Below, one piece after another: positions 11,154-58,278 of a stretch of 64,000 nt of DNA. The notes under the pieces were generated by a model. That model worked only from the letters and a program-made list of their open reading frames with translations. It was not told where the DNA came from and did not search any database. Numbering within the stretch: position 1 is the stretch's first letter; every line of letters starts with the position of its first letter. Source of the stretch: Methanococcus voltae (GTDB taxonomy: Archaea; AGJL01; Methanococci; Methanococcales; Methanococcaceae); contig NZ_JAGGMO010000001.1 in the NCBI RefSeq assembly GCF_017875395.1, positions 248,001-312,000 on the forward strand, in the 5' to 3' direction. Both the position numbers and the translations under genes were made by a program.

Positions 11154-11644
11154 GGAGGTGCTAAAATATGGCAGATAAAAAAGCCCCTGCAGCAGGATGG
11201 CCTGTTGCTAATGGTGAATATGTTGTAGGTAATCCTGAAAGCTGTGTAGCTGTTGTTACATTGGGTTCACACGGATTAGATGAAGCAGCTATCGAAGCAG
11301 GTGCAGCTATCTCAGGACCTTGCCACACAGAAAACTTGGGTATTGAAAAAGTTATTGTTAACTACATTTCAAATCCTAACATCAGATTTATGGTTGTGAC
11401 AGGTTCAGAAGTTCAAGGACACATTACAGGACAATGTTTCAAAGCTCTCTATGAAAACGGAATTGGTGACGATGGTGGTATTATCGGCGCTAAAGGAGCT
11501 ATTCCTTTCATGGAAAACGTTGGAAAAGAACCAGTTGCAAGATTCCAAAATCAAATCGTTGAATTAATTGATATGATTGATTCAGAAGATAAAGGAAAAA
11601 TTCAACAAACAGTTAAAGACTGTATCTCCAAAGACCCTGGTGCA
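11154..11644 (+). repeat. First copy of a 491-bp identical duplication (mtrA 5' region)
   Basis: The segment runs from the ribosome binding site GGAGGTGCTAAAAT through codon 157 or so of mtrA. It matches 12162-12652 base for base at an offset of 1008 bp. Similarity continues patchily for another 60 bp after the end. The bases before position 11154 differ from the second copy, so the boundary sits exactly at the ribosome binding site. Confidence 0.95.
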
Positions 11645-11896
11645 TTCGAAGAAGAAGCTATGGTTATAGACCTTGAGGGTAAAGCAGGCGGAGCTGGAGA
11701 AGAAGAAGGTTCATCAGTTAAAATGACATCCCCAGAAATGGCAATTATCGAATCAAGAATGAGAATCATCTCAAAACAGATCGAACAAGCTGCAATTGTT
11801 AACAAATACAACTCTGGATACTATAACGGTAAAATCCAAGGTATTGCAATAGGCTTATTCTTGTCACTTCTCATATACAGTATGTTATTAATCTAA
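11168..11896 (+). CDS. mtrA: Methyl-H4MPT:coenzyme M methyltransferase subunit A (cobamide carrier)
   Basis: The product is 242 residues. The N-terminal domain of about 170 residues binds the 5-hydroxybenzimidazolyl cobamide. H85 in [10 protein letters not shown] matches the known cobalt-ligand histidine (His84 in the Methanothermobacter protein). A charged linker and a C-terminal membrane helix ([22 protein letters not shown]) give the standard MtrA architecture. It receives the methyl group from MtrH and passes it to coenzyme M. The first 491 bp including the ribosome binding site are identical to the next gene, and the two diverge after DPGA (residue 159). Confidence 0.97.
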
Positions 11897-12161: not shown

Positions 12162-12652
12162 GGAGGTGCTAAAATATGGCAGATAAAAAAGCCCCTGCAG
12201 CAGGATGGCCTGTTGCTAATGGTGAATATGTTGTAGGTAATCCTGAAAGCTGTGTAGCTGTTGTTACATTGGGTTCACACGGATTAGATGAAGCAGCTAT
12301 CGAAGCAGGTGCAGCTATCTCAGGACCTTGCCACACAGAAAACTTGGGTATTGAAAAAGTTATTGTTAACTACATTTCAAATCCTAACATCAGATTTATG
12401 GTTGTGACAGGTTCAGAAGTTCAAGGACACATTACAGGACAATGTTTCAAAGCTCTCTATGAAAACGGAATTGGTGACGATGGTGGTATTATCGGCGCTA
12501 AAGGAGCTATTCCTTTCATGGAAAACGTTGGAAAAGAACCAGTTGCAAGATTCCAAAATCAAATCGTTGAATTAATTGATATGATTGATTCAGAAGATAA
12601 AGGAAAAATTCAACAAACAGTTAAAGACTGTATCTCCAAAGACCCTGGTGCA
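12162..12652 (+). repeat. Second copy of the 491-bp identical duplication
   Basis: This segment is identical to 11154-11644, starting at the ribosome binding site and ending where the two proteins diverge. No mismatch was found on line-by-line reading. Identity at synonymous sites implies a recent duplication or ongoing gene conversion. Confidence 0.95.
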
Positions 12653-12937
12653 ACAGATGAAGAAGCTATGGTTATAGACCTTGAGGGTAAAGCTGGTGAA
12701 GCAGGAGAAGATTCAGGCGATGGTTTCGCTATCGAAGGTATCCCTACTGTATCAGAACCAGACCTTGAATATATAAGGAAATTAAACGAAAGTCTCGACT
12801 ATAAAGTGGGCCTAACTACAAGAGATTTAGGTCTTGCTTCTGGAGTTCAGTCTGAAAGCCTCACCGGTTTATTATATGGTATGATGTTTGCATTAGTATT
12901 CGTTGCAATACCATTAATATTAAAAATTGGATTTTAA
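12176..12937 (+). CDS. mtrF: MtrA cobamide domain fused to MtrF-like tail
   Basis: The product is 253 residues. Residues 1-159 are identical to MtrA, including cobalt ligand H85. After an acidic linker, residues 191-253 ([21 protein letters not shown] to the end) look like a complete MtrF: a charged region with YIRKLN and TTRDLGL, then one membrane helix ([21 protein letters not shown]). The gene occupies the mtrF slot between mtrA and mtrG, and no separate mtrF exists in the window. It would therefore give the Mtr complex a second cobamide domain on the F subunit. Domain assignment of the tail is by recognition and position. Expression as a fusion is inferred. Confidence 0.85.
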
Positions 12938-57443: not shown

Positions 57444-57897
57444 TTTATCCCCAAATAGTGGTTGTAAATTAAATTTTATGTAAATTTTGTATAAATTATA
57501 TATCACATAATTAATGATATATTGTATATTAATAGATTTAAAATTAAATTTTACGTTAATTGAATCCAAAATTTGGACAATAATACTATGGGCACATAAT
57601 ATATAAAATTAATTAGGTAATATTCGATAATGACAAATATGGCCATTGAATATGCGAAAAAATAAAAATAAAAATAAAATCATTAAAGAGCATGTAGATG
57701 TTTTTATAAAAATTATAGTTATATCTGTAAAAATATCTGTAAAAATAACAATAACACATGTAAAATAATTTTCTAGTAAATATAATATTATAAAATAGCA
57801 TGATTAATTCATAACGATTAAGTAGATATTAATTATTAATAAATTTTTAATAAAATCTTATTAAAAGTCATTTTGTATTATTAAGTGATATAATTCA
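57444..57897. other. AT-rich spacer between peptide ORFs and the ABC operon
   Basis: About 450 bp with no convincing gene. TATA-like stretches (for example ttatatattatgtg on the minus strand, around 57590-57605) could provide an ABC operon promoter. A minus-strand Tyr/Phe-rich frame at 57613-57801 lacks a ribosome binding site and is not called. It is not clear whether transcription from the peptide ORFs reads through. Confidence 0.4.
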
Positions 57898-57942
57898 TTA
57901 AGGAGTAATTTTGATACCGTTAGGTCCTACTCTGGTAAACAT
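57898..57942 (-). CDS. 14-residue peptide ORF 1
   Basis: ATG 57942 is preceded by the strong site GGGGGTGT with 6-nt spacing and opens a 14-codon frame ending in TAA: MFTRVGPNGIKITP. It is too short to be recognised by length alone. However, it matches the adjacent ORF at seven of fourteen positions (MF.R.G..GIK), is the same length, and carries its own good ribosome binding site. It is basic and has no membrane segment. It could be a secreted signal or a modified-peptide precursor, or a leader peptide. Confidence 0.6.
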   Translation of the reverse strand: MFTRVGPNGIKITP

Positions 57943-57998
57943 TTTCGTACACCCCCTTGAATTTTTGTATTATTTTTGTATTTAAATAACATATTTCA

Positions 57999-58043
57999 TT
58001 AATTGTTAGCTTTGATACCTTTGAGCCCTGTTCTAGAAAACAT
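57999..58043 (-). CDS. 14-residue peptide ORF 2
   Basis: ATG 58043 follows a perfect GGAGGTGT with 6-nt spacing and opens a 14-codon frame ending in TAA: MFSRTGLKGIKANN. An in-frame TAA lies about 30 nt upstream with no alternative ATG, GTG or TTG between, so it is a closed ORF. It is the first of two tandem, similar 14-residue ORFs. A TATA box at 58089-58100 on the minus strand lies at a normal distance to start transcription near 58068. Confidence 0.6.
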   Translation of the reverse strand: MFSRTGLKGIKANN

Positions 58044-58088
58044 TTTTTTACACCTCCAATTTCTTGTAATAATAGGTTAGTGTTTCTA

Positions 58089-58100
58089 GTATATATATTT
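58089..58100 (-). promoter_or_regulatory. TATA box for the tandem peptide ORFs
   Basis: On the minus strand the sequence reads AAATATATATAC. A start about 25 nt downstream would leave a leader of roughly 25 nt before the ribosome binding site and ATG of peptide ORF 2. Confidence 0.5.
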
Positions 58101-58278
58101 AACTATGCTTAAATTTATTAAGCACAATTAAAGATATATTTTACTCATGAATAAGACTATATATCAAAACTTGTAAATATTAATCAATTAATACTCAAAA
58201 AATAGAAAAATAAAAAATTAAATTAATATAACTTAAAAAAAGATTAAATTAGTAACACTTACGTATTTGATGGTATAT

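What the first reader, a model, noticed from the sequence alone, without database searches (positions are those of the whole stretch)
57898..58100. Two tandem 14-residue peptide genes with strong ribosome binding sites
Two closed ORFs of exactly 14 codons lie in tandem, each behind a near-perfect GGRGGTGT site at identical spacing. Their products align without gaps (MFTRVGPNGIKITP and MFSRTGLKGIKANN; MF.R.G..GIK conserved). A TATA box precedes them. Identical length, conserved pattern and duplicated translation signals are unlikely by chance in AT-rich DNA. They may be secreted peptides, signalling peptides, modified-peptide precursors or a regulatory leader pair.
Basis: seen in the sequence. 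Interest (0 to 1): 0.78.

Follow-up and report, generated by a model that had tools for sequence, protein, structure and literature searches.

The report
Iron-regulated 14-residue peptide genes
Two tiny genes, each for a 14-residue peptide, are real and evolutionarily maintained in a Methanococcus-type archaeon, and they sit behind the same tandem switch sequence that precedes this group's iron-uptake genes, so they are probably made when iron runs short.

Summary
Two 14-codon ORFs (58043-57999 and 57942-57898) have identically spaced SD sites and a TATA box upstream. They are kept at the same place in two sister species (five ORFs in three genomes). Between the two closest species only 1 residue changes among 9 base substitutions, against 6.6 expected (P about 1e-4), so the peptides are under selection.

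The promoter carries two TTTAA-N6-TTAAA palindromes 19 bp apart (58132-58098). A matrix trained only on feoB upstream regions of other genomes scores this site 30.4 bits, the best in the 64-kb window (next 7.6). In this genome near-perfect tandem boxes were found at five loci: feoA/feoB, dtxR/feoA2, an iron-type binding protein, ArsR plus a metal ATPase, and these peptides.

A pattern search not conditioned on the box found, in a fourth species, an exactly 14-residue relative (MNSRSGISGKKRNK) directly behind such boxes. A fifth species has a 27-residue relative behind boxes upstream of feoA-feoB.

Best reading: a new micropeptide family of the DtxR-type iron regulon, made in iron shortage. The molecular target is inferred only; an MntS-like intracellular effector is the leading guess. 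Secreted-signal, modified-peptide and leader readings are not supported.

The parts
57999..58043 (-). peptide gene 1, 14 codons + stop, MFSRTGLKGIKANN
   Evidence: ORF with SD; identical peptide in G005 with 4 substitutions, all third-position synonymous; MFSRIGIKGIKVNP in G006
57898..57942 (-). peptide gene 2, 14 codons + stop, MFTRVGPNGIKITP
   Evidence: ORF with SD; G005 has MFNRVGPNGIKITP, 4 of 5 substitutions at third positions
58050..58057 (-). Shine-Dalgarno site GGAGGTGT of gene 1
   Evidence: GGAGGTG kept in G005 and G006
57949..57956 (-). Shine-Dalgarno site GGGGGTGT of gene 2
   Evidence: GGAGGTGT in G005
58117..58132 (-). upstream half of tandem iron box, TTTAATTGTGCTTAAT
   Evidence: 19 bp from the second half; kept in G005 and G006
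58098..58113 (-). downstream half of tandem iron box, TTTAAGCATAGTTAAA, overlapping the 5' end of the TATA region
   Evidence: tandem unit 58098-58132 scores 30.4 bits with feoB-trained matrix, rank 1 in the window; only window site with <=2 mismatches
58086..58102 (-). BRE/TATA region TTAAATATATATACTAG
   Evidence: TTAAATATATATACTA invariant in three species; promoter function inferred from sequence
57838..57869 (-). T-rich stretch after gene 2, possible archaeal-type terminator
   Evidence: sequence only; inference
57593..57617 (-). separate conserved promoter block of the ABC operon (not part of the peptide unit)
   Evidence: CCTAATTAATTTTATATATTATGTG in all three species, while the linker to the peptides is unconserved

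Best explanation
This is a mini-operon of two tandem-duplicated genes for 14-residue basic peptides, members of a previously undescribed micropeptide family (M-x-[STN]-[RK]-x-G-[ILP]-x-G-x-[KR]) that belongs to the DtxR-type iron regulon of Methanococcus. SHOWN by sequence: two intact ORFs with strong SD sites, purifying selection on the peptide, a tandem 19-bp-spaced box overlapping the BRE/TATA and shared with feo and dtxR promoters, and relatives behind the same boxes at other loci and next to feoA-feoB in another species. INFERRED: Fe(II)-loaded DtxR binds the two palindromes, blocks TBP/TFB, and keeps the unit off when iron is sufficient; when Fe(II) falls it is derepressed together with feoAB, and the SD sites give high translation. 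LEAST CERTAIN: the peptides then act inside the cell as small cationic effectors of the low-iron response, most likely by binding a transporter or regulator of iron homeostasis, as MntS is proposed to do for manganese in E. coli.
For: Same locus and promoter in three species; 1 amino-acid change in 9 substitutions versus 6.6 expected, P ~1e-4. FeoB-trained matrix: peptide promoter 30.4 bits, next best in 64 kb 7.6, no score >=15 in 600 kb of AT-rich Markov DNA. Box control: 20 of 25 feo loci have the tandem box upstream, 0 in 63 kb elsewhere in the same loci, 0 in six 1.9-Mb Markov genomes. Own-genome boxes with <=1 mismatch lie at feoA, dtxR/feoA2, SBP, ArsR/P-type ATPase and the peptides. 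Unconditioned pattern search in 37 genomes hits only the known peptides plus two G003 ORFs, both directly behind boxes, one exactly 14 aa; G002 relative lies behind boxes upstream of feoA-feoB. Box-to-ATG distance is 89 bp in all three sister species. Published M. voltae proteomics: FeoA, FeoB and DtxR rise together in FeS2-grown cells (PMC8516115, PMC9431491).
Against: No expression, binding or phenotype data for the peptides. That DtxR, rather than another regulator, reads the box is inferred from the box's place at feo and dtxR. The box also lies upstream of the divergent MFS gene. The function step rests on analogy. The family was not found in G001 or G004 of the same genus. The matrix was trained on the best-matching site of each feoB upstream region, which sharpens it.
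Confidence: 0.62

Rival explanations
1. The active product is the iron-responsive RNA (a RyhB-like iron-sparing sRNA); the ORFs are incidental or secondary.
For: Iron-regulated sRNAs are common in bacteria (established knowledge); the iron box would fit equally; MntS of E. coli itself was first seen as an RNA, RybA (PMC4361602).
Against: Substitutions between G000 and G005 fall at third positions in 8 of 9 cases; SD sites and ORF length are conserved while the sequence between the two ORFs is not; the RNA folds no better than shuffles (z = 0.54); no Rfam match.
Confidence: 0.12
2. Exported peptides: signals, antimicrobials or iron-carrier precursors handled by the neighbouring MFS or MacB-type ABC system.
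For: In three species the peptides sit between an MFS permease and a MacB/FtsX-type ABC operon; they are cationic.
Against: No signal sequence; the 14-mers contain no Cys, His, Asp or Glu, so an unmodified peptide is a poor metal ligand; the ABC operon has its own promoter block; MFS and ABC homologues in G001-G004 lack the box; G002/G003 relatives have other neighbours.
Confidence: 0.1
3. The iron box serves the divergent MFS gene and the peptides are bystanders with an unrelated role.
For: The box lies between the two divergent promoters, about 140 bp from the MFS start.
Against: Box-to-peptide-ATG distance is 89 bp in all three species while the MFS side carries an insertion in G006; the box overlaps the peptide TATA region; MFS orthologues in G001-G004 have no box; unrelated-locus relatives of the peptides do have it.
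Confidence: 0.08
4. A translated leader (attenuator) controlling the ABC operon downstream.
For: Same strand and upstream of the ABC operon in three species.
Against: Unconserved ~450-bp linker with a separate conserved promoter for the ABC operon; no run of regulatory codons; relatives elsewhere are not upstream of such operons.
Confidence: 0.04

Closest known systems
MntS of Escherichia coli (42 aa, repressed by MntR with Mn)
   Same: Small protein gene under a metal-responsive repressor, induced when the metal is scarce; MntR belongs to the DtxR family (general knowledge).
   Different: MntS is 42 aa, concerns manganese and MntP, and is bacterial (PMC4361602); these are 14 aa, archaeal, tandem, behind iron boxes, and no sequence relation was shown.
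Bacillus subtilis FbpA/FbpB/FbpC small basic proteins (Fur regulon)
   Same: Small basic products induced by iron limitation (PMC papers listed and general knowledge).
   Different: Fur rather than a DtxR-type box, longer, and tied to the FsrA sRNA; no sRNA partner seen here.
FeoC and other small Feo accessory proteins
   Same: Small products tied to the feo system; in G002 the relative is encoded immediately upstream of feoA-feoB.
   Different: FeoC proteins are far longer winged-helix proteins (general knowledge); the G002/G003 relatives match no Pfam or NCBIfam model, and the 14-mers are too short to scan.
DtxR/IdeR-type operators
   Same: Paired palindromes in tandem upstream of iron genes, read by Fe_dep_repress-type proteins; such a protein (PF01325+PF02742) is encoded beside boxes in this genome.
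   Different: Sequence is AT-rich TTTAA-N6-TTAAA rather than the actinobacterial TTAGG type (general knowledge); no binding data.

Membership tests
Protein-coding micropeptide gene | Purifying selection on the amino-acid sequence | tested here: met
   1 residue change versus 6.6 expected, P ~1e-4
Protein-coding micropeptide gene | Translation shown by footprints or mass spectrometry | not testable with these tools
   no such data held
DtxR-type iron regulon | Operator shared with feo promoters | tested here: met
   30.4 bits with feoB-trained matrix, rank 1 in window; control 20/25 feo loci versus 0 in 63 kb
DtxR-type iron regulon | DtxR homologue encoded in the genome | tested here: met
   L154:3378-2959, PF01325 and PF02742, beside boxes and feoA2
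DtxR-type iron regulon | Iron-dependent expression and binding by DtxR | not testable with these tools
   needs experiment
Methanococcus iron-box micropeptide family (defined here) | M-x-[STN]-[RK]-x-G-[ILP]-x-G-x-[KR] N-terminus behind a tandem box | tested here: met
   G000, G005, G006, G003 (two), G002; G006 and G003 14-mers 8/14 identical ungapped, shuffle P 2e-4
MntS-like small metal effectors | Repressed by a DtxR-family regulator | tested here: inconclusive
   operator present, regulation not measured
MntS-like small metal effectors | Sequence homology to MntS | not tested
   no comparison made; functional analogy only
MntS-like small metal effectors | Effect on metal pools or a transporter | not testable with these tools
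   needs experiment
Secreted signalling peptide | Export signal or dedicated exporter kept with all members | tested here: not met
   no signal sequence in 14 residues; MFS/ABC neighbours only in the three sister species
Ribosomally made modified peptide (RiPP) | Modification enzyme encoded nearby | tested here: inconclusive
   adjacent genes are ABC ATPase, unnamed membrane protein, CARDB protein, MacB permease and MFS; the rest of the genome was not searched
Leader peptide/attenuator | Cotranscription with and location just before the regulated gene | tested here: not met
   ~450-bp unconserved gap and separate promoter block before the ABC gene; cotranscription itself not measured

The most novel reading that the evidence does not exclude
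Archaea of the genus Methanococcus use a family of independently transcribed ~14-residue cationic peptides as dedicated effectors of iron homeostasis, derepressed with feoAB by the DtxR-type regulator and acting on the Feo system or on iron-protein expression, which would place them among the shortest standalone protein-coding genes with a defined regulon.
Probability: 0.45. Interest if true: 0.85.

Novelty: new variant of a known kind. Interest (0 to 1): 0.7.

Why it matters
Genes this short are invisible to normal annotation. Here the regulon membership comes from an independent signal (the feo-type box), which turns an orphan peptide into one with a specific, cheap test: iron limitation. 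It suggests archaea, like bacteria, add tiny proteins to their metal-starvation response, and the box-plus-SD approach could find more in methanogens, which have an exceptional demand for iron. It also gives a predicted iron operator and regulon for Methanococcus.

Tried and rejected
Narrow MF.R.G..GIK pattern in 85k species and in viral contigs: only chance hits, inside larger or out-of-context frames. The MFGRHG ORFs of three related-genus genomes looked similar but are the N-termini of 74-93-aa proteins. Rfam: nothing. RNA structure: not better than shuffles. Small ORFs near MFS and ABC homologues of G001-G004: none of the family and no box. Microcin C-like precursor (short peptide ending in Asn beside an MFS exporter): considered because gene 1 ends in NN, rejected because the other members end in P, P and K; no search for the adenylating enzyme was made. 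Pfam/NCBIfam on the 27-28-aa relatives: no match. Fully quantitative homology of 14-mers is limited; I relied on length, ungapped identity and shared box.

Full report
OBSERVATION. The two ORFs exist exactly as described, on the minus strand: MFSRTGLKGIKANN (58043-57999) and MFTRVGPNGIKITP (57942-57898), behind GGAGGTGTAAAAAAATG and GGGGGTGTACGAAAATG. The combined pattern occurs twice in the window and never in 100 shuffles. In sister species G005 the repeated unit includes flanking bases (ATTACAAGAGATTGGAGGTGTA before and TAATGAAGTATA after), so the pair arose by tandem duplication.

CONSERVATION. The strict pattern was found in 3 of 61 genomes, all of one genus, at the same place between the ABC ATPase and the divergent MFS gene: two copies in G000 and G005, one in G006 (MFSRIGIKGIKVNP). 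G000 versus G005 shows 9 substitutions in the two ORFs, 8 at third positions, with 1 residue changed against 6.6 expected for random placement (P about 1e-4). The promoter, SD and ORF are conserved, while the linker towards the ABC gene is not, and that gene has its own conserved promoter block. The unit is therefore an independent gene pair and not a leader.

THE PROMOTER. The DNA search returned a 26-30-bp stretch of this promoter elsewhere in Methanococcales, beside feoB and an iron-type substrate-binding protein. Inspection of feoB upstream regions showed TTTAA-N6-TTAAA palindromes repeated at 19-bp steps. The peptide promoter has the same arrangement: TTTAATTGTGCTTAAT-AAA-TTTAAGCATAGTTAAA (58132-58098), ending in the BRE/TATA region. 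A matrix built only from feoB upstream regions of other genomes gives 30.4 bits here, rank 1 in the 64-kb window (second 7.6), with no score of 15 or more in 600 kb of Markov DNA of intergenic composition. As controls, 20 of 25 feo loci have a tandem box with at most one mismatch within 900 bp upstream, there were none in 63 kb elsewhere in the same loci, and none in six simulated 1.9-Mb genomes. The reversed-pattern control at two mismatches was less clean (14 versus 4 in G000), so only sites with at most one mismatch are used.

THE REGULON IN THIS GENOME. Sites listed with at most one mismatch lie at the feoA-feoB operon, between a DtxR homologue (PF01325, PF02742) and a second feoA, at a Peripla_BP_2 protein pair, at ArsR plus a heavy-metal P-type ATPase, and at the peptides. 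In M. voltae A3 grown on FeS2, FeoA, FeoB and DtxR rise together, read by the authors as sensed Fe(II) limitation (PMC8516115, PMC9431491). That the window's organism is close to M. voltae is inferred from gene order and content, not shown.

RELATIVES AT OTHER LOCI. A broader pattern, not conditioned on the box, was run over 37 genomes. It hit only the known peptides and two ORFs in G003. I designed the pattern after noticing one of those two (the 28-aa MGSKNGISGNKKKGYSFYKMYLEGCFDE behind a box), so that one is not independent. The other, MNSRSGISGKKRNK, is independent: it is exactly 14 aa, has a GAGGTG SD, lies behind a triple box at a different locus, and is identical to the G006 peptide at 8 of 14 positions (shuffle P 2e-4). 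A scan of held loci added G002: MSSKSGITGKRKNCQFYKMYMGRCFDE behind a triple box, overlapped by a 16-aa ORF that G003 also has, then a further box, feoA, a small Cys-rich ORF and feoB. In both G002 and G003 this pair follows a tpiA-like gene. The link to iron genes is thus seen through the box in five species and through gene neighbourhood in one.

HOW IT MOST LIKELY WORKS. Shown: ORFs, selection, SD sites, box and its sharing with feo/dtxR. Inferred: Fe(II)-DtxR covers the BRE/TATA and represses; low Fe(II) derepresses the peptides with feoAB. Least certain: the product. The 14-mers are cationic (+2 to +5) and contain no Cys, His, Asp or Glu, which argues against a simple metal carrier; no signal sequence or consistent exporter argues against secretion. 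A small intracellular effector in the manner of E. coli MntS, a 42-aa protein repressed by MntR and proposed to block an exporter (PMC4361602), fits best, with an RNA-binding role as in the Fbp proteins of B. subtilis as an alternative form.

LIMITS. No expression or binding data. The family was not detected in G001 and G004, but the pattern needs a GGTG site that the G002 member lacks, so absence there is not proven. Novelty is judged against the tools and papers searched, not the whole literature.

Noticed in passing
window 11168-11896 and 12176-12937: Two mtrA-type ORFs in tandem share about 180 nearly identical N-terminal residues and then differ completely at the C-terminus, as after gene conversion.
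   Followed up: no
L165, L166:7079-7213, L167:6909-7064, L168:7549-7698: A 41-52-aa Cys-rich ORF lies between feoA and feoB in four Methanococcus species; the G002 copy has no convincing Pfam or NCBIfam match. Candidate Feo accessory protein.
   Followed up: partly
L161:2307-2644 (G003): A tandem iron box precedes a 49-aa Asp/His/Cys-rich ORF (MSKDFESCDCGSSALQDLKDHLNDLDSHLHDVLAHVGHVKAHSDEDNIK), a possible metal-binding small protein.
   Followed up: no
L160 and L165: A 16-aa ORF (MNNLVISKFGFRMRFI / MNKFFITKCGYRLRFI) overlaps the stop of the 28/27-aa relative by its ATGAATAA start in two species, suggesting translational coupling.
   Followed up: partly
window 57565-57617, minus strand: Conserved promoter block of the ABC operon contains the palindrome TCCAAATTTTGGA in G000 and G005, a possible operator of a different regulator.
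   Followed up: no
L082-L084: A 74-93-aa protein starting MFGRHGFF with a CRCGLGPHAYY motif lies beside a ParA/Mrp-type ATPase in three related-genus genomes; a similar MFGFGRK protein in L005 lies behind a single iron-like palindrome.
   Followed up: partly
L153:1199-3859 (G000:C7): An ArsR regulator plus heavy-metal P-type ATPase carries one of the best iron boxes of the genome (31.9 bits), suggesting iron control of a metal ATPase.
   Followed up: no
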